Shown in pieces: positions 3,878 through 24,170 of a stretch of DNA of 41,160 nucleotides. The stretch is from Bacteroidota bacterium. Its GTDB lineage: Bacteria > Bacteroidota > Bacteroidia > CAILMK01 > JAAYUY01. Location of the stretch: positions 1-41,160 of the forward strand of contig JABINZ010000266.1 in NCBI GenBank assembly GCA_018698135.1, in the 5' to 3' direction. Position numbers and translations under genes: made by a program. Position 1 is the first letter of the stretch; each line of letters starts with the position of its first letter. The notes under the pieces are model-generated. The model saw only the letters and a list, made by a program, of their open reading frames with translations. It was not told the DNA's origin and did no database searches.

Positions 3878-5197
3878 ATGAAAAAAACTAGAAACAACCT
3901 GACAATAATCTTCCTGATATTTTGCATGGCAATGAATGTACATGCAAAAGTGGATCCCCGACCCTATCAATACGGGAATTATTTTGTTTCTAAGAAAGAA
4001 ATACTCGAAGACCCAAAATTGAAGTTAATTATACGAAATGCAGGATTTCAAAAAAACGACAAAATAGCTGACATTGGTTCCGAAAATGGTTGTGTACCCG
4101 CTATCCTTTCGATGTTTTACGACCAACTTTCTTTTCACTTAGAGGATATAAATCCTGCAACCTTAAATGACATTGAGTTTAATAAAGTTCGCAACTATTA
4201 TGAGAAATTAAGTGCAAGCACATTTAATTCGGATTTCACCCTTCATATAGGTCAGCAAAGTCAAACATTGTTGCCAACTGATTATTTTGATCATGTAATG
4301 CTTAATGATGTTATTCATCAAGCCTACTATCCTGATAGTTTGATGTCAGATATTTATCGGATTTTGAAAACTGATGGAAAAGTCTTAATCGGACAATATA
4401 ATAATAATGGGATAAGTGAAAAAAATATTCAATTTTTTGCCCAAAGAAATGGATTTGAATTGCTTTCAAAATATCAAGAAGGCAACTACAATCTGTACAT
4501 ATTTCAGAAATCAACAAAGCAAGCTTCTATTCAGCTAAATATTCATCTGGCAGCAATAATTGGAGACAAGCAACTCCTGTCTGAATATGTTCAAAATGAC
4601 TTTCATGCTGTAAACCAGATTGATGAATTAGGTTTTACACCTTTAATGTATGCAGCAAAATATGGACATTATGATTGTGTAGAGTATTTAACAACCAATC
4701 ATGCTGAAGTTGATTTTAAAAGTGCAATATACCCTGTTACACCTCTTCTACTATCCATTCGAAATAACCATTATGAAATAACCAAGTTTTTGTTAAACCG
4801 CGAAGCTCATGTAAATCAGACTTTTTATGGAAAATCTGCATTGATGATTGCCGCTGAAAATGGAAACGCAGAAATGGTCAATTTACTTGTAAATCATACA
4901 GCCGATTTAAACTATAGCTTTGAAGGAAGAGATGTTGTTTACTATGCAGTTCAAAGTGGCAACCTTTATTTGGTAAAGTATTTCTTTACTATTTCAAAAG
5001 TAAAAATTAATAAAAAAGATAAAGTAGGACGTACTCTTCTATCCTATGCAGCAACTTCTAGTAACCCGGGTATTATTCGCTATTTGATTGAAGATAAAAA
5101 AGCAAAAAAGAATACCATGGATAAATGGGGCAACAAGCCATCAGACTATGCATGGAATCGGGATGTTGCCAACTATCTTACATCAAATGCAGGTTAA
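3878..5197 (+). CDS. Exported methyltransferase-like / ankyrin-repeat fusion protein
   Basis: A 439-residue protein with three parts. Residues 1-23 are a signal peptide ending NVHA. Residues about 40-215 resemble a class I SAM-dependent methyltransferase: motif I is DIGSENGC, a strand-ending acid lies in LEDINP, and the post-motif block is FDHVMLNDVIHQAYYP followed by IYRILKTDGKVLIGQ. Residues about 225-430 hold roughly seven ankyrin repeats (GFTPLMYAAKYGH, GKSALMIAAENGN and others). SAM is not normally available outside the cytoplasm, so the first domain may bind something else or be inactive; its glycine motif is degenerate. It starts 3 bases after murF. The combination is unusual and its role is unknown. 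Confidence 0.75.
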   Translation: MKKTRNNLTIIFLIFCMAMNVHAKVDPRPYQYGNYFVSKKEILEDPKLKLIIRNAGFQKNDKIADIGSENGCVPAILSMFYDQLSFHLEDINPATLNDIEFNKVRNYYEKLSASTFNSDFTLHIGQQSQTLLPTDYFDHVMLNDVIHQAYYPDSLMSDIYRILKTDGKVLIGQYNNNGISEKNIQFFAQRNGFELLSKYQEGNYNLYIFQKSTKQASIQLNIHLAAIIGDKQLLSEYVQNDFHAVNQIDELGFTPLMYAAKYGHYDCVEYLTTNHAEVDFKSAIYPVTPLLLSIRNNHYEITKFLLNREAHVNQTFYGKSALMIAAENGNAEMVNLLVNHTADLNYSFEGRDVVYYAVQSGNLYLVKYFFTISKVKINKKDKVGRTLLSYAATSSNPGIIRYLIEDKKAKKNTMDKWGNKPSDYAWNRDVANYLTSNAG

Positions 5198-16040: not shown

Positions 16041-16070
16041 AAAAAAAAACCGCTCCCTGATAGAGAGCGG
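16041..16070 (-). terminator. Intrinsic terminator (minus strand)
   Basis: CCGCTC (16050-16055) pairs with GAGCGG (16065-16070), with a further CT/AG pairing inside. On the minus strand the stem is followed by nine T, from the A-run at 16041-16049. It lies 28 bases beyond the stop of the Cys-rich protein gene. Confidence 0.85.
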
Positions 16071-16097
16071 CCCAAAACACAATTAAAAATCAAAAAT

Positions 16098-16400
16098 CTA
16101 CTTCTTCGTACCTTTTGAAGAACAACATTTGGCTGCTGTGCTCGTTGATTTACATGCTGATTTGCAATCTTTGCTTGAAGTTGTTTTTGAACAACTTGAC
16201 TCGCATTTACTTGTTTTTTTGCTTAAGTCAGCTTTTTTCTTTGTTTCTGCTTTTTTCTTTTTATCATCATCAGGAGTTTTATCCTCATCAGCTGATGAAA
16301 TCATTTCGGTATTTGTTTTTGTTATCTGAATGGCTTTTACACTTAAAGTTGTTATAAATGCCATGACTAACACTATGGATAATATTCTTATTACTTTCAT
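16098..16400 (-). CDS. Small exported Lys/Cys-rich protein
   Basis: A 100-residue protein of unknown function. Residues 1-25 form a signal peptide or anchor (MKVIRILSIVLVMAFITTLS). A charged spacer follows (DEDKTPDDDKKKKAETKKK), then a Cys-rich tail with CESSC, DCKSAC and CC (six cysteines) ending in KGTKK. The cysteines could form disulfides or bind metal in the periplasm; nothing decides between these. The ATG at 16400 is preferred to a TTG at 16424. It has its own terminator. The low-complexity composition means homology searches may mislead. Open frames on the opposite strand here are compositional shadows. Confidence 0.7.
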   Translation of the reverse strand: MKVIRILSIVLVMAFITTLSVKAIQITKTNTEMISSADEDKTPDDDKKKKAETKKKADLSKKTSKCESSCSKTTSSKDCKSACKSTSTAAKCCSSKGTKK

Positions 16401-16518
16401 ATCTTTATTTTTAATTCCTTTCAAATATAAGACACAAAAGCTATTTGTTCCAAATTTATTTTTAGATTTATTCTTATTTAGGAAACCGCTCTATTAGTAC
16501 TGTTTGATTACCTAATAA

Positions 16519-18042
16519 TTAAGGAAATAATATTGTAAAATCAGTTCCTTCATTGATTTGAGATTTTACATCAATTTTAAAATTGTGTGCATCTAAAATG
16601 CGCTTTACAATACTTAGTCCAAGGCCGCTTCCTATTTCACCAGCTGTACCAACTGTGTGACCTTCAAAATGATCTTTGAATAGTTTTTTCAAAGCATCAG
16701 GCTTCATTCCTACTCCAGAATCCTTAATGCTTAAACTTGTAGACCCTGATTCGTTATTTGAAGCAGTAATTTTTATTGAGCCATTCTCGGGAGTAAACTT
16801 AATTGCATTGCCAACTAAATTATTTATTGCCTGATTTAATAGTGTTTCATCTGCTTCAATAATTAATGTTGAAGGTACACTTAATTCAAGGCTTATGTGT
16901 TTACTCTTCAGATCCATTATAAAAGTGTTCTCCACTTCTCTACATACATAATAAAGATTAATCTTTTGCTTGGTTAGCTTGAACTTTCCTAACTCCAAAT
17001 TTGACCAATGATAAATTTTCTTGGTGTAATCAAGAAGTCTTTTAACGCTAAGGTTGATAAATGAGATTATTTCTTTTTGCTCAATGTTTAGCTTTTTCTG
17101 AAATTCTTCATCCCTCATTAATAAGTCTGAAAAACCTGATATGGCTGTTACAGGAGATCGTAAATCATGTGAAATTATTGAAATAAATTGTTCCTTAAAC
17201 TTCAACACTCTTTCAAGTTCCCTCTCTGCTTTTAACAAGTATTCATAATCAAGGTTCTTTCGCCTGGCTTTTTGCAGAATGTTAACCTCACTATCTTTTG
17301 AGTAATCAATCATTTTAATAAACAGAATATCTCGTTCTTCAATTGAAAGAGCATATGCCTGCAAATAATACTCTTTTCCTTGATTATTTACTTCTGTCCA
17401 TAACTCCGAAGAAATTAAGTTGTTTTCCTTCTTTTTCCATAATTCTCTAGCTTCTTCAAGAAATGTTTCAATGAAAATAAACTTTTCCTGAATTGCAATA
17501 AACGCTTTTTCTACCTCTTCTTCTGAAAAAATATCTGAGAACCAAAATGGCTTATGACCTATTAACTTAAATTTTCCTTTTTCTATTCTTTCAAAGGAAA
17601 CAATATTTATGGAAGCCAATATCATTGAGAGTAGATGTTGGTCAAATATGCAATTTTCTTCGCTATTCATTTTTTCTCTTAGAATTTTCTCATTAATAGG
17701 TTGGACTTTGTGTTTTAAATCCAAACTCTCAGCTAAAGAGTTGAAATAAAGCACGAATACATTTTGACCGTCCTTAACCAAATGGATATCATACACTTGA
17801 CTAGCTGAAATCTCAATTTTAGGTAAAATTAACTTTAGTGACTGAAGAGGGAAATAGCCAACTAAATAAGGAGCAATATTCAAAATTTGTTCTCCAATAC
17901 TTGATTTTAAATCTATATTATTTTTAAAACTGCCTGCTTCTAATATTCGACTTTCTTCACTTAACAGGAAATAGAAGTCAAGTTTATTTTCTACTTTATT
18001 AAAATCAATGTATTCACTTATTTGAGATGGAATTATTGTCAT
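16519..18042 (-). CDS. Cytosolic sensor histidine kinase, last gene of the GTPase operon
   Basis: A 507-residue kinase with no membrane segment. Residues about 15-110 and 130-250 look like two divergent PAS-like sensor regions. The dimerization/phosphoacceptor block is FISIISHDLRSPVTAISGF with His near residue 292. The ATPase domain has the N-box NQAINNLVGNAIKFTP, G1 KDSGVGM, and G2 GSGLGLSIVKRIL near residue 476. No response regulator is encoded beside it, so its partner lies elsewhere. It follows the small GTPase by only 2 bases, which suggests that the GTPase or the trans-envelope protein delivers its signal. The absence of transmembrane helices fits input from a cytoplasmic partner rather than direct periplasmic sensing. 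Confidence 0.9.
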   Translation of the reverse strand: MTIIPSQISEYIDFNKVENKLDFYFLLSEESRILEAGSFKNNIDLKSSIGEQILNIAPYLVGYFPLQSLKLILPKIEISASQVYDIHLVKDGQNVFVLYFNSLAESLDLKHKVQPINEKILREKMNSEENCIFDQHLLSMILASINIVSFERIEKGKFKLIGHKPFWFSDIFSEEEVEKAFIAIQEKFIFIETFLEEARELWKKKENNLISSELWTEVNNQGKEYYLQAYALSIEERDILFIKMIDYSKDSEVNILQKARRKNLDYEYLLKAERELERVLKFKEQFISIISHDLRSPVTAISGFSDLLMRDEEFQKKLNIEQKEIISFINLSVKRLLDYTKKIYHWSNLELGKFKLTKQKINLYYVCREVENTFIMDLKSKHISLELSVPSTLIIEADETLLNQAINNLVGNAIKFTPENGSIKITASNNESGSTSLSIKDSGVGMKPDALKKLFKDHFEGHTVGTAGEIGSGLGLSIVKRILDAHNFKIDVKSQINEGTDFTILFP

Positions 18043-18044
18043 TT

Positions 18045-18542
18045 CTAAACAGTCATAATCTTTTCAACAAGGATTTTAAATGCATCTTCAACACCAGTTC
18101 CTCCTTTTGCACTTGTTTGGATAACTTGCCAGCCTTGATTCTGAAGGCTAACGATATCTTTTTCCTTAACCTCCCACTTGTCTATTAAATCAAGCTTATT
18201 AAGTAAAACGACAAAAGGAACATTCCCTATCGTTTCAATAACACGATTATGTAGCTCTTTTAACTTATCCAAGGTATTTTTTCGTGTACCATCAGCAACT
18301 AAAAAATAGGCTGATGCACCTACTAGATAAGATGTTTTTATCTTTTGAAAATCGTCTTCACCATGAATATCCCACAGTATAAGGTTTACATCTTCTCCAT
18401 TATGAATAACGATCTTCTGATCTATTTTTACACCAATAGTGGTCATATATTTTTCAGAAAAAATACTGGTAACATAGCGTTGTACCAAGCTGGTTTTACC
18501 AACAGCAAAACTACCAATCATACAAACCTTCTTCTTAATCAT
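18045..18542 (-). CDS. Ras/Rab-like small GTPase
   Basis: A 165-residue stand-alone G domain very like eukaryotic Ras/Rab proteins. G1 is GSFAVGKTS (residues 10-18). G2 is TTIG with the Thr at residue 35, as in Ras. G3 is WDIHGED (Asp58, Gly61), with Glu where Ras has catalytic Gln61. G4 is NKLD (115-118) and G5 is TSAK (143-146). There is no C-terminal cysteine, so no prenylation. It belongs with bacterial Ras-superfamily GTPases outside the MglA group. The missing Gln suggests slow intrinsic hydrolysis or a partner-supplied residue. Spacing is 5 bases from the OmpA-type gene upstream and 2 from the kinase downstream, so it is translated as part of this unit. Confidence 0.92.
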   Translation of the reverse strand: MIKKKVCMIGSFAVGKTSLVQRYVTSIFSEKYMTTIGVKIDQKIVIHNGEDVNLILWDIHGEDDFQKIKTSYLVGASAYFLVADGTRKNTLDKLKELHNRVIETIGNVPFVVLLNKLDLIDKWEVKEKDIVSLQNQGWQVIQTSAKGGTGVEDAFKILVEKIMTV

Positions 18543-18547
18543 ATTGT

Positions 18548-20269
18548 TTATTCTATCTCCACTAATTTTATAGAAACTCTACGCATTAAACTATCTGAAA
18601 CATCTTCTTTAGTTGATGTTACTGATTCAATCATGAAATATTCTTCCAGAATATCCCTATTAATCAGACTTCTGATGACTGCTTTAGCTCTGGCGTTGCT
18701 TATGTAATTATTTGCTGAAACAGTTCCATATTGATCAGAATATCCCAATACCTCAAAATAATACTTGTTTTTGAATTCCTTTTCTAAATTCAAAAACTCA
18801 TTTATGTATCCCGATATCTTAGCCAATACTTCTGCATGAGATGAATCAATAATATACCCACCTCTGTTAAACAAAACATTGCATTTTGCCAGCTTTTTAT
18901 TTAATTCTTCAGCAGAAAAATAGTAACCAATTTCTAATTGTTCTGTATTAATACTTTTCAAACCCGTTATTTCAGGTAAAACATTCACTATTGAATCTAC
19001 AAAAGCCTGACTACGTTTTCCTGTTAATAACACCTCACCTCTACTGACTTCAATTCCATTATTGATATCATCGGTAAGCTGAAGTTTATGTAACAATTTG
19101 AGATATAAAACTTCTTCATTTATTGAAACATAGTTTTCTAATCTGATAATAATATCAGATGAATCAATTCCAAAATTTGAGTATATAAGGTCAACATCAA
19201 ACACTTCAGGATCCTTTAAGCCATGCACATAATATATTCCTTTATGCTTAGTAATGTCGGTAACAACAACGCCAGGCAGGCTATCAATTTCATTAAATAC
19301 CTTTTCCCAATTATTCTTTTTTTGTGAAGCAGAAAAAATCCAATAACTAATTAATGACGCAATTATGACAAGTAAAATCCATAATACAATAGATTTTTTC
19401 TTTTTTGGAGCTTTTCTTTTCTGAATGACACATTTCTCTAGCGAATCAATCGTTTTATCGAATACTGATGTATCTCCATCAAATGTTTTAAGTTCTTTTG
19501 AAAACAATTGTGAAATATTTTCAATTTCATTTTTTAAAACGTCTCTGTATGTTTCAGCTACATTTCCTTGTACAACAGCAGCAAGAATAACATGAGGTCC
19601 TTGCTCAATCCAGACATTAACATCTCCAACTTGTATGCTGCCTAACTCTTCATTTTCATCAAGGTGAAAAGAATCAAGAACAAAATCCTGAATTGCTTTA
19701 AGCATGCCTGAAACCATATCAGCCTGAATATCTTCTTGTTGATTAGCAACAATATGATTCAAAAGCAAACCTGTTTTTCTATGGATTAAAAACACCTCTG
19801 AAACACGGTACTCAAGGTTATTGAGCATTACAATTTCTGCAAATGACTTACCTGTACGAATTGACTCCATTCGCCATTTTAAGCTTTTCAGGGAGAAACT
19901 ATTTTCAATGCTCTGATTCATAGACTGAATCATTTTTCGAAATGCATCACTGATTGCTTTTCGAATGGCAGGCCCCATAATTGGGAACATGGCTTCTGCA
20001 AGTGGATTAGGGTCTCTGCTAACACTTTTAAGTATCGACTCTTCAACAATTGGGAATAATGTGTCGCTTAATTCTCCAGAATTATCGTGTGATTTACGCT
20101 TTATTGCATCCGCAACAATTAGGCTCACTTCCTGTGCAAAATTATCTGAATCATCCAAGCGATTTTTCAGGGCTTGCAATTCAGTAATTTCCAAACCAAG
20201 AATTAATTCACGTAACTCTTGAAGTTTAAAAGACTCAATCTTGGCAATATTTTTATCCTTTGCCGACAA
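18548..20269 (-). CDS. Trans-envelope protein: cytoplasmic platform, one TM, BON-like and OmpA domains
   Basis: A 573-residue protein. Residues 65-150 hold a conserved helical region (LFPIVEESI, NPLAEAMFPIMGPAIRKAI, KWRMESIRTGKSFAEIVML). Residues about 157-275 resemble a Roadblock/longin-type platform (VFLIHRKTGLLLNHI, VNVWIEQGPHVILAAVVQGN). A basic patch (QKRKAPKKKK) precedes one membrane helix at 293-313. A BON-like region is at about 385-447 (SRGEVLLTGKRSQAFVDSI), and an OmpA-type peptidoglycan-binding domain at 463-570 carries GYSDQYG and SNARAKAV with the expected Asp and Arg. Roadblock-like domains commonly partner small GTPases, and one is encoded next. The start is a TTG at 20269, 11 bases after the preceding stop; no ATG or GTG is better placed. 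Confidence 0.82.
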   Translation of the reverse strand: MSAKDKNIAKIESFKLQELRELILGLEITELQALKNRLDDSDNFAQEVSLIVADAIKRKSHDNSGELSDTLFPIVEESILKSVSRDPNPLAEAMFPIMGPAIRKAISDAFRKMIQSMNQSIENSFSLKSLKWRMESIRTGKSFAEIVMLNNLEYRVSEVFLIHRKTGLLLNHIVANQQEDIQADMVSGMLKAIQDFVLDSFHLDENEELGSIQVGDVNVWIEQGPHVILAAVVQGNVAETYRDVLKNEIENISQLFSKELKTFDGDTSVFDKTIDSLEKCVIQKRKAPKKKKSIVLWILLVIIASLISYWIFSASQKKNNWEKVFNEIDSLPGVVVTDITKHKGIYYVHGLKDPEVFDVDLIYSNFGIDSSDIIIRLENYVSINEEVLYLKLLHKLQLTDDINNGIEVSRGEVLLTGKRSQAFVDSIVNVLPEITGLKSINTEQLEIGYYFSAEELNKKLAKCNVLFNRGGYIIDSSHAEVLAKISGYINEFLNLEKEFKNKYYFEVLGYSDQYGTVSANNYISNARAKAVIRSLINRDILEEYFMIESVTSTKEDVSDSLMRRVSIKLVEIE

Positions 20270-20280
20270 AGAAAAACTGC

Positions 20281-20832
20281 TTATTTAGTATCCTCATGAG
20301 AATCACCACTTATTTTAAGAGCCATTTCAGTTAAATAAACAGCTAATGCTGAACGATCAATTTTACTTTCATCCAACTGACTCACGCTTTCGCTGATCGA
20401 ATCCTTTAATTCTCGATGAACAGTTTTTAATTCATTGGCTTGTTCCTTGGATTTATCAAGTACCAATTTGCGCAAGTCCTTTGATGTTTCTGAAAGCTTT
20501 TCTTTCTGATTCAGCAACTTATTTGCAAGATTCTCATTTTCTTTTGTCAGCTTTTTGATTAACTGATTCCGCTCTGTTTCCTCTTGTTTAAGTTGACTGG
20601 AAATAGATTTAAACTCAGCCTTAATGAATTGCTCTAAATCATCTACTCTTTTTTCAAAATCACGCTGAATAGAAGCAACTTCAGAATGAAGTTTAGTATC
20701 CAAAGAATGAAACTTCTTCTCATATTCAGTCATGTTATTCCCAAAAAGAATATCACGTATTTTAGAAATGCTTTCACCTTCTAAATTTTCACGTGCTTCG
20801 GTTTGGACCTTTTTAAGTTCATCTGCACTCAT
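20281..20832 (-). CDS. Coiled-coil protein, first gene of the GTPase operon
   Basis: A 183-residue hydrophilic cytoplasmic protein. After a short N-terminal segment with ISKIRDILFGNNMTEYEKKF near residue 22, it is a long coiled coil (about residues 40-165) with regular heptads and many Lys, Glu and Gln. There is no signal peptide or membrane segment. It lies 11 bases upstream of the trans-envelope protein and probably forms a scaffold or a contact with its cytoplasmic half. It has no recognised family name. The ATG at 20832 is well placed. A weak promoter-like box (TAGTTTTG on the minus strand, 20947-20954) lies 115 bases upstream without a good -33 element. Confidence 0.75.
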   Translation of the reverse strand: MSADELKKVQTEARENLEGESISKIRDILFGNNMTEYEKKFHSLDTKLHSEVASIQRDFEKRVDDLEQFIKAEFKSISSQLKQEETERNQLIKKLTKENENLANKLLNQKEKLSETSKDLRKLVLDKSKEQANELKTVHRELKDSISESVSQLDESKIDRSALAVYLTEMALKISGDSHEDTK

Positions 20833-22517: not shown

Positions 22518-24170
22518 ATGCAGCACTATTCGAGTCATTTTAGAATCCTCTTGATTTCATTTTCTTTATTAATTAGTTTCAGCCTCTTTGCACAAAAAGA
22601 AAACAAATTGCTAATTGCCGCTGCTGATGGTAATATCGATAAGGTAAAGCTTTATCTATCAAAAAACATAGATGTTAATGTTAAGGGGAATTATGACAAT
22701 AGCCCACTCACGATAGCTGCAAAAAACAACCATTTGGATGTGGTTGAATATCTTGTTGAAAACAATGCAGATATATTGCATAAAAACGATCTGGGTTATA
22801 CTGCTTTACTTTATATGATTGCTTCTGGAAATTTATCAGGAGTTAAATTATTAGTTGACAATGGAGCTAAAATTAACGATTATAGTATAAATGGGGCAAG
22901 CTCATTAATGATTGCAGTCGAATCAGGAAATTTTGAATTGGTGAAATTTCTGATTTCAAAAAAAGCCTCCATTAATGATTTTGAAAAAATATATGGCGAA
23001 ACTGCACTGATGTGGGCCATTATTAATCGCAATGTTCAGATTGCTAAACATTTAGTTTTAAAAGGAGCTCAAATAAATGCAACAGAAATTAATGGTTATA
23101 CAGCGCTAATGTATGCATGCGATTTGGGAAATTTAGAGCTAGTGGAATTACTGGTAAAAAAAGGTGCTGACGTGAATGCCCGCGACAAAAATGGCAAATC
23201 GGCAATCATGCATTTTCCAAAAGAAAATGGGAATATTGAAATTATAAAGTTTCTTGCAGCATATAGCGAAAAGGGCAAAGAACATGATCCCTACATTAAT
23301 CTAAATTCCTTTCAAGGATACATTGCACTAAGCCATGCTGCCAAACAAGGAGAAACCAAACTACTTCAGTATATAATGGAAAATAGGCAGAATAAGGATG
23401 TCGATTTTTCAACCGCTTTGTTGTATGCTTCAGAAAATGGACATTTAGCAACTGTCAAATATTTAATAAACGAACAGCATGTAGATGTAAATATCCGATC
23501 AGATAGAGGAGAGACTGCCATGTTATTTGCTGCAAAAAACAATCATATTGAAGTTATTCGGTTTTTATTTGATAAGAAAGCCGATGCTGAACTCCGCCAA
23601 TCAAATGGTCGTAATCCTTTGATCATGGCCATAATAGGTGGGCACATGGAAACAATTCATTTTTTGGTTGAACATGGTGCTCTACTAAATGTGATGGATG
23701 AATCATCCATATTAAATGATGAGGAAGCTGCTTCAGCACTTATGCATGCTTGTGTTAGAGGTTATGTTGATATTGCTAAATACATCATTGACAAAGGTGC
23801 AGATTTGAATTTAAGAAACGACCAGGGAAATGATGCGTTAATCGTTTCCATAAATCATAATCATTTTGAATTAGGTGAATATTTAATCAATAAAGGTGCA
23901 AATGTTAATGCTAAGAATAAAAGAGGTTTTACCCCTTTAATGATGGCTACATCTAAAGGAAGTTTAAAACTAACTAAAATGTTAGTCGAAAGAGGGGCAA
24001 TTGTAAATATGATAAACAAAGATAAAGCTGCAACAGCCTTGGATTTTGCTTATGTGGGCTGGAATCTTTCTTCCAGTTTTAAGGACAAAGTACAACGAAA
24101 AGAGTACAATGAGATAATTAAATATATCAAATTAAAAGGTGGGAAAACTGGTTGGGAAATGATGAAATAA
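22518..24170 (+). CDS. Exported ankyrin-repeat protein
   Basis: A 550-residue protein with a signal peptide (RILLISFSLLISFSLFAQ) and then about 15 consecutive ankyrin repeats filling nearly the whole length (GYTALMYACDLGNLELVELL, GETAMLFAAKNNHIEVIRFL, GFTPLMMATSKGSLKLTKML and others). Repeats 7-9 and 12 are irregular, with short insertions. Ankyrin repeats bind proteins; exported forms in bacteria act in the periplasm or outside the cell, and the partner here is unknown. A short C-terminal helix (YNEIIKYIKLKGGKTGWEMM) closes the stack. The ATG at 22518 is used because the nearby ATG at 22514 is out of frame. The gene ends 2 bases from the convergent radical SAM gene. Confidence 0.85.
   Translation: MQHYSSHFRILLISFSLLISFSLFAQKENKLLIAAADGNIDKVKLYLSKNIDVNVKGNYDNSPLTIAAKNNHLDVVEYLVENNADILHKNDLGYTALLYMIASGNLSGVKLLVDNGAKINDYSINGASSLMIAVESGNFELVKFLISKKASINDFEKIYGETALMWAIINRNVQIAKHLVLKGAQINATEINGYTALMYACDLGNLELVELLVKKGADVNARDKNGKSAIMHFPKENGNIEIIKFLAAYSEKGKEHDPYINLNSFQGYIALSHAAKQGETKLLQYIMENRQNKDVDFSTALLYASENGHLATVKYLINEQHVDVNIRSDRGETAMLFAAKNNHIEVIRFLFDKKADAELRQSNGRNPLIMAIIGGHMETIHFLVEHGALLNVMDESSILNDEEAASALMHACVRGYVDIAKYIIDKGADLNLRNDQGNDALIVSINHNHFELGEYLINKGANVNAKNKRGFTPLMMATSKGSLKLTKMLVERGAIVNMINKDKAATALDFAYVGWNLSSSFKDKVQRKEYNEIIKYIKLKGGKTGWEMMK

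What the first reader, a model, noticed from the sequence alone, without database searches (positions are those of the whole stretch)
16519..20832. Trans-envelope small-GTPase operon: coiled coil, platform-TM-BON-OmpA protein, Ras-like GTPase, histidine kinase
Seen: four minus-strand genes with gaps of 11, 5 and 2 bases. One protein joins a cytoplasmic Roadblock/longin-like region to a periplasmic OmpA peptidoglycan-binding domain through one helix; the next is a Ras/Rab-like GTPase with all five G motifs; the last is a histidine kinase with no membrane segment. Known: Roadblock/longin folds act as platforms or GAPs for small GTPases, and MglA/MglB is the best studied bacterial case. Inference: cell-wall state sensed by the OmpA/BON half is passed to the GTPase and then to the kinase. 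I know of no characterised system with this arrangement.
Basis: partly seen in the sequence, partly recalled or inferred. Interest (0 to 1): 0.78.

Follow-up and report, generated by a model that had tools for sequence, protein, structure and literature searches.

The report
Wall-anchored bacterial Rab-like GTPase operon
Four adjacent genes encode a signalling relay in which a wall-anchored protein is predicted to hold a Rab-like molecular switch inside the cell that controls a histidine kinase; the gene set was described from genomes in 2014, but its key domain was unassigned there and is here predicted to have the fold that regulates Rab switches in our own cells.

Summary
In detail: four minus-strand genes (20832-16519; gaps 11, 5, 2) encode a coiled coil, a 573-aa platform-TM-OmpA protein, a Rab-like GTPase and a soluble histidine kinase. 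The arrangement is not new. Wuichet & Sogaard-Andersen (2014, PMC4316618) described it as the Group 1 Rup system: coiled coil, unknown domain-TM-OmpA, GTPase lacking the G3 glutamine, and an output protein with an invariant N-terminal glutamine. All are met here. That paper left the platform domain unassigned, and I found no experimental study. Likely mechanism: the wall-anchored platform docks and loads the GTPase, whose GTP form binds the kinase's glutamine modules. Binding and direction are inferred, not shown. Verdict: new member of a known, uncharacterised kind.

The parts
20281..20832 (-). Gene 1: cytoplasmic coiled-coil protein, 183 aa
   Evidence: ORF; homologues directly upstream of the platform gene in 72/76 loci
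18548..20269 (-). Gene 2: platform-TM-OmpA protein, 573 aa (TTG start)
   Evidence: ORF, OmpA, AF2 model
19844..20269 (-). Gene 2 residues 1-142: mainly helical cytoplasmic region
   Evidence: AF2, lower confidence (pLDDT mostly 56-75)
19427..19843 (-). Gene 2 residues 143-281: longin/Roadblock-fold domain
   Evidence: AF2 pLDDT 86.3, pTM 0.79; Foldseek hits to TRAPP, Ragulator, Mon1-Ccz1, Sec22b, MglB
19334..19390 (-). Gene 2 residues 294-312: transmembrane helix
   Evidence: Hydropathy 2.66, lysines on the N-terminal side
18890..19282 (-). Gene 2 residues 330-460: periplasmic alpha/beta region, possibly BON-like
   Evidence: AF2 secondary structure; weak BON hit in 1 of 46 homologues; full-model Foldseek alignment to two-domain Rv0899, rmsd 14
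18557..18874 (-). Gene 2 residues 466-571: OmpA peptidoglycan-binding domain
   Evidence: Pfam OmpA 3.5e-08; Foldseek OmpA/Pal hits down to 6.5e-07
18045..18542 (-). Gene 3: Rab-like small GTPase, 165 aa (Rup Group 1)
   Evidence: Pfam Ras 8e-31; 45% median identity to operon-linked homologues
18492..18515 (-). GTPase G1 motif GSFAVGKT with Phe at the Ras Gly12 position
   Evidence: Phe in 64 of 91 aligned relatives
18357..18371 (-). GTPase G3 motif DIHGE, Glu in place of catalytic Gln61
   Evidence: Gln in only 3 of 91
16519..18042 (-). Gene 4: soluble histidine kinase, 507 aa
   Evidence: HisKA and HATPase_c
17662..18042 (-). Kinase residues 1-127: N1 module, conserved Gln114 (codon 17701-17703)
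   Evidence: Gln in 28 of 30 aligned
17218..17643 (-). Kinase residues 134-275: M1 module, conserved Gln257 (codon 17272-17274)
   Evidence: Gln in 26 of 28 aligned
16522..17196 (-). Kinase catalytic core: HisKA 283-350, HATPase_c 398-507
   Evidence: Pfam

Best explanation
This is a Group 1 Rup system, a four-protein trans-envelope small-GTPase relay. Gene 2 is fixed to the inner membrane by one helix and to peptidoglycan by its OmpA domain; its cytoplasmic half is a longin/Roadblock domain that docks the Rab-like GTPase and controls its nucleotide state, most likely as a loading (exchange) platform like the longin pairs of TRAPP and Mon1-Ccz1. The coiled-coil protein probably scaffolds the complex. 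The GTP-bound GTPase binds the glutamine modules (N1 with Q114, M1 with Q257) at the front of the soluble histidine kinase and sets its activity. Because the GTPase lacks Gln61 and has Phe at position 12, it should hydrolyse GTP slowly unless a residue is supplied in trans; the kinase glutamines are the candidates (idea of PMC4316618), making the kinase both effector and GAP. Shown by sequence or prediction: domains, fold, conserved gene order, conserved glutamines, missing G3 Gln. Inferred: binding, direction, exchange role, trans-glutamine catalysis, wall state as input.
For: Every feature given for Group 1 Rup systems in PMC4316618 that I could test is met: coiled coil, domain-TM-OmpA, Rab-like GTPase without G3 Gln, output with conserved N-terminal Gln. 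Longin/Roadblock fold of the platform. Conserved order in at least 13 phyla. Outputs change (kinase, HD-GYP, GGDEF, nucleotide cyclase, sigma-54) while the glutamine modules stay, as expected if the modules are the GTPase-facing part. Longin pair of TRAPP binds its Rab much as MglB binds MglA (PMC10933270).
Against: No interaction, structure of a complex or phenotype is available. Roadblock/longin domains serve as GAPs, GEFs or inert scaffolds, so an exchange role is a choice among three. TM-scores are moderate (about 0.35-0.56) and sequence profiles do not find the relation. Relatives without TM or OmpA exist, so wall sensing cannot be the core function of the family.
Confidence: 0.55

Rival explanations
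1. Conservon-like order: the kinase acts upstream and the GTPase, with the platform as its MglB-like GAP, is the output that acts at the envelope.
For: No response-regulator gene lies beside this kinase; PMC4316618 argues that in actinobacterial conservons the GTPase is the output; the platform fold also matches MglB (3t12).
Against: In relatives the kinase position is taken by HD-GYP, GGDEF, nucleotide cyclase or sigma-54 proteins, which are typical end points of a pathway; the constant part of these proteins is the glutamine module in front.
Confidence: 0.2
2. Positional scaffold: the OmpA protein only fixes the GTPase and output protein at a place on the wall (for example pole or septum); it senses nothing.
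For: OmpA plus coiled coil suit anchoring; OmpA-less relatives show that the core works without a periplasmic part; MglA/MglB is a positioning system.
Against: A structured periplasmic region lies between the TM and OmpA parts (confident in the AF2 model), more than an anchor needs; no localisation data either way.
Confidence: 0.2
3. Chance neighbours: an ordinary kinase and an OmpA protein that happen to flank a GTPase gene.
For: None found.
Against: Same order in most of 80 loci from many phyla; published earlier as a conserved neighbourhood.
Confidence: 0.01

Closest known systems
Group 1 Rup GTPase systems (Wuichet & Sogaard-Andersen 2014, PMC4316618)
   Same: Gene content, topology of the OmpA protein, GTPase without G3 Gln, glutamine-bearing N-terminus of the output protein
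   Different: Platform domain, unassigned there, is predicted longin/Roadblock here; this kinase has two glutamine modules; nucleotide-cyclase and sigma-54 outputs found here are not in the sections of that paper I read
Actinobacterial conservons (CvnA-D)
   Same: Kinase + Roadblock-fold protein + small GTPase + further protein in one operon
   Different: MglA-type GTPase with GTPGQ G3, membrane-bound kinase, separate MglB-type Roadblock protein, no OmpA (PMC4316618)
MglA/MglB
   Same: Small GTPase with a Roadblock-fold partner; MglB is among the Foldseek hits
   Different: MglA G3 is TVPGQ or GTPGQ, here DIHGE; no Robl_LC7 match in this genome; partner here is membrane- and wall-anchored
Eukaryotic longin Rab regulators (TRAPP core, Mon1-Ccz1)
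   Same: Longin-fold domain predicted to partner a Rab-like GTPase; a TRAPP core entry is the best structural hit (2j3t)
   Different: Bacterial, fused to a TM-OmpA wall anchor, coupled to kinase or second-messenger outputs; exchange activity unknown

Membership tests
Group 1 Rup system | Single-domain Ras/Rab-like GTPase under 240 aa with canonical G1, G4, G5 | tested here: met
   165 aa; GSFAVGKT, NKLD, TSAK; Pfam Ras 8e-31
Group 1 Rup system | No glutamine in G3 | tested here: met
   DIHGE; Gln in 3 of 91 relatives
Group 1 Rup system | Neighbouring coiled-coil gene | tested here: met
   20281-20832, homologue upstream in 72/76 loci
Group 1 Rup system | Neighbouring conserved domain-TM-OmpA gene | tested here: met
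   18548-20269
Group 1 Rup system | Output module (c-di-GMP enzyme or kinase) with N-terminal invariant Gln | tested here: met
   Q114 and Q257 at the conserved positions; identity with the Gln of the published logo assumed, figure not seen
Group 1 Rup system | GTPase falls in the Rup Group 1 clade of the published tree | tested here: inconclusive
MglA | TVPGQ or GTPGQ in G3 | tested here: not met
   DIHGE; motif definition from PMC4316618
Longin/Roadblock fold | Five-stranded sheet with central helix in the order beta2-alpha-beta3 and flanking helices | tested here: met
   AF2 order and Foldseek hits; a prediction, not a solved structure
Longin/Roadblock fold | Match to a curated family model (Robl_LC7 or longin) | tested here: not met
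   No Pfam match in the window; 1 of 78 relatives to Intu_longin_1 at 0.0044
Rab GEF (TRAPP-like) | Stimulates nucleotide exchange on its GTPase | not testable with these tools
   Needs biochemistry
BON domain | Match to Pfam BON | tested here: inconclusive
   None in the window protein; 1 of 46 homologues at 0.0032
Histidine kinase | HisKA with H-box and HATPase_c | tested here: met
   SHDLRSP; HisKA 3e-12, HATPase_c 4e-24

The most novel reading that the evidence does not exclude
Bacteria of many phyla possess a true longin-Rab regulatory pair: a wall-tethered longin platform loads a Rab-like GTPase, which drives kinases, second-messenger enzymes or sigma-54 activators through a glutamine module that is both effector site and GAP. 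The longin-Rab partnership of eukaryotic membrane traffic would then have a bacterial counterpart used for envelope signalling, on the GTPase branch (Rup Group 1) that PMC4316618 finds very similar to Rab/Ras/Ran/Rho.
Probability: 0.35. Interest if true: 0.8.

Novelty: new member of a known kind. Interest (0 to 1): 0.52.

Why it matters
Group 1 Rup GTPases were reported as very similar to eukaryotic Rab/Ran/Ras/Rho, yet none had been characterised and their regulator was unknown (PMC4316618). Assigning the wall-anchored partner to the longin/Roadblock fold gives a concrete, testable partner and suggests that pairing of longin-type platforms with Rab-type GTPases is not confined to eukaryotes and Asgard archaea. 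The exchange of output enzymes behind constant glutamine modules makes the trans-glutamine GAP idea directly testable by point mutation.

Tried and rejected
Profile search of the platform against PDB gave only a chance-level hit to Rv1264 (E 0.33); Pfam gave nothing consistent over 78 members. N1 and M1 modules against PDB and Pfam gave nothing solid (one N1 member to PAS_9 at 5e-4); hhalign against a single PAS sequence was suggestive for N1 (p 0.002) and negative for M1, so 'PAS-like' is only a hint. No plasmid match. The promoter scan is at chance level. I saw no fusions of GTPase with platform or kinase in the fetched loci. Labels 'HD-GYP?' and 'EAL?' from my regular expressions were set aside in favour of the Pfam tally. 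The conservation of DM[VI][SA]GML[KT] in the genome-contig loci is partly ascertainment, because that pattern found them; in loci found by profile the motif is seen with small changes in 11 of 16 genes, and my expression missed the other 5.

Full report
OBSERVATION. The four genes are present as described: 20281-20832, 18548-20269, 18045-18542 and 16519-18042, all on the minus strand, with gaps of 11, 5 and 2 bases. Gene 2 has an OmpA domain (residues 466-554, 3.5e-08), gene 3 is a Ras/Rab-type GTPase (8e-31) and gene 4 a histidine kinase with HisKA and HATPase_c. Gene 2 has one strong transmembrane segment (294-312) with lysines on its N-terminal side, so its N-terminal half should be cytoplasmic and the OmpA half periplasmic; gene 4 has none. 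The window lies in a 4.2-Mb assembly.

THE ARRANGEMENT IS PUBLISHED. [quoted passage not shown] The GTPases lack the G3 glutamine, and the authors suggest it may be supplied in trans. No Rup protein had been characterised then, and no later paper on it turned up in the held library under the names I searched. The library lacks most subscription journals, so later work elsewhere cannot be excluded.

TESTS OF MEMBERSHIP. GTPase: G3 is DIHGE; Gln stands there in 3 of 91 relatives. The P-loop is GSFAVGKT; the Ras Gly12 position is Phe in 64 of 91. Lys16, the switch-I Thr, DxxG, NKxD and SAK are kept almost throughout, so nucleotide and Mg binding should be intact while self-catalysed hydrolysis should be slow (inference). 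Identity is 34% to human Rab23 and a median of 45% to operon-linked homologues. Neighbours: in 80 loci fetched by the platform domain, from at least 13 phyla by their titles (Acidobacteriota, Gemmatimonadota, Planctomycetota, Verrucomicrobiota, Cyanobacteriota, Chloroflexota, Calditrichota, Deferribacterota, Latescibacterota, Delongbacteria, Spirochaetes, Desulfobacterota, Proteobacteria, Bacteroidota), the coiled-coil gene is directly upstream in 72/76 and the GTPase directly downstream in 63/71. In a sample of the phylum, 14 of 395 genomes, this one included, have the platform: widespread but patchy. MglA is excluded by the G3 motif, and no Robl_LC7 (MglB-type) gene is detected in this genome or 39 relatives.

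THE PLATFORM DOMAIN. This is the main new result. AlphaFold2 on the whole protein with 46 sequences gives, for residues 143-278, the order helix, two strands, helix, three strands, helices. A second model of residues 134-290 with 78 sequences has pLDDT 86.3 and pTM 0.79. Foldseek against the PDB then returns a TRAPP core entry (best, 9.1e-5), AP and COPI small subunits, Ragulator, Rag complexes, Mon1-Ccz1, Sec22b and MglB; nearly all of the 50 listed hits are complexes built on this fold. TM-scores are moderate (about 0.35-0.56 of the query). Sequence profiles alone do not find the relation, which explains why the domain was 'unknown' in 2014 and still matches no Pfam model. By the rules in PMC10933270 Roadblock has an N-terminal helix and longin lacks it but has a second C-terminal helix; this domain shows both, so I do not choose between them. 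The central helix 183-201 is the most conserved element; part of that conservation is ascertainment, because the search pattern lay in it, but loci found by profile show the same motif with small changes. TRAPP longins bind Ypt1 in a geometry similar to MglA/MglB (PMC10933270) and longin and Roadblock domains share a GTPase-binding mode (PMC3521125), so GTPase docking is the natural function; exchange, GAP and scaffold roles cannot be told apart here.

THE OUTPUT PROTEIN. Pfam over 54 output proteins finds HisKA in 21, HD domains in 12, GGDEF in 6, adenylate/guanylate cyclase in 5 and sigma-54 activators in 2. In front of these lie two distinct modules, N1 and M1, each ending in a stretch with a conserved glutamine: N1 Q..NE..L (Gln in 28 of 30) and M1 LQ..R...L (Gln in 26 of 28). 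The window kinase has both, Q114 and Q257, as do eight other outputs; most have one, and in L049 the two lie on separate neighbouring proteins. Profile comparison suggests that N1 and M1 are related (p 8e-5, probability 60%), and N1 may be PAS-like, but no model was made.

MECHANISM. Best supported: wall-anchored longin/Roadblock platform -> Rab-like GTPase -> glutamine modules -> kinase activity, with the module supplying the missing catalytic glutamine. Domain content, fold, order and conserved residues are shown by sequence or prediction; every interaction and the direction are inferred. Relatives in Flavobacteriaceae and some others have a platform of about 270-290 aa without TM or OmpA, so the core is platform plus GTPase plus output, and wall sensing is a layer present only in the OmpA forms. 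Rivals are a conservon-like reverse order and a pure positioning role.

JUDGEMENT. The finding is real and its structural guess was good, but the system is a known, uncharacterised kind. The added value is the fold assignment, the tandem glutamine modules, the Phe12/Glu62 switch chemistry and the wider range of outputs.

Noticed in passing
window 16098-16424 (-), 16047-16073: A 108-aa ORF with a hydrophobic N-terminus and a Lys/Ser/Cys-rich tail lies 94 bases behind the kinase gene, followed by a terminator-like 12-bp stem with a T tail; it could be a fifth gene of the transcript, but no homologue was found beside the related operons.
   Followed up: partly
window 3878-5197 (+): One 439-aa protein joins a methyltransferase domain to ankyrin repeats; a second ankyrin-repeat protein lies at 22518-24170.
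   Followed up: no
window 19844-20269 (-): The helical N-terminal part of the platform protein (LADALFPVMGPAIRKAI) weakly resembles the regulatory domain of the M. tuberculosis adenylyl cyclase Rv1264 (E 0.33, not significant).
   Followed up: no
L098, L099, L104, L106, L013, L020, L007: Short platform proteins (270-289 aa) without TM or OmpA, still next to a coiled coil, the GTPase and a kinase or glutamine module in most; L106 has two GTPase genes.
   Followed up: partly
L084, L085: Calditrichota versions in which the output protein is a sigma-54 transcription activator behind an N1 module.
   Followed up: no
L065, L067: Acidobacteriota loci with a rearranged order: GTPase and kinase genes lie upstream of the coiled-coil and platform genes.
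   Followed up: no
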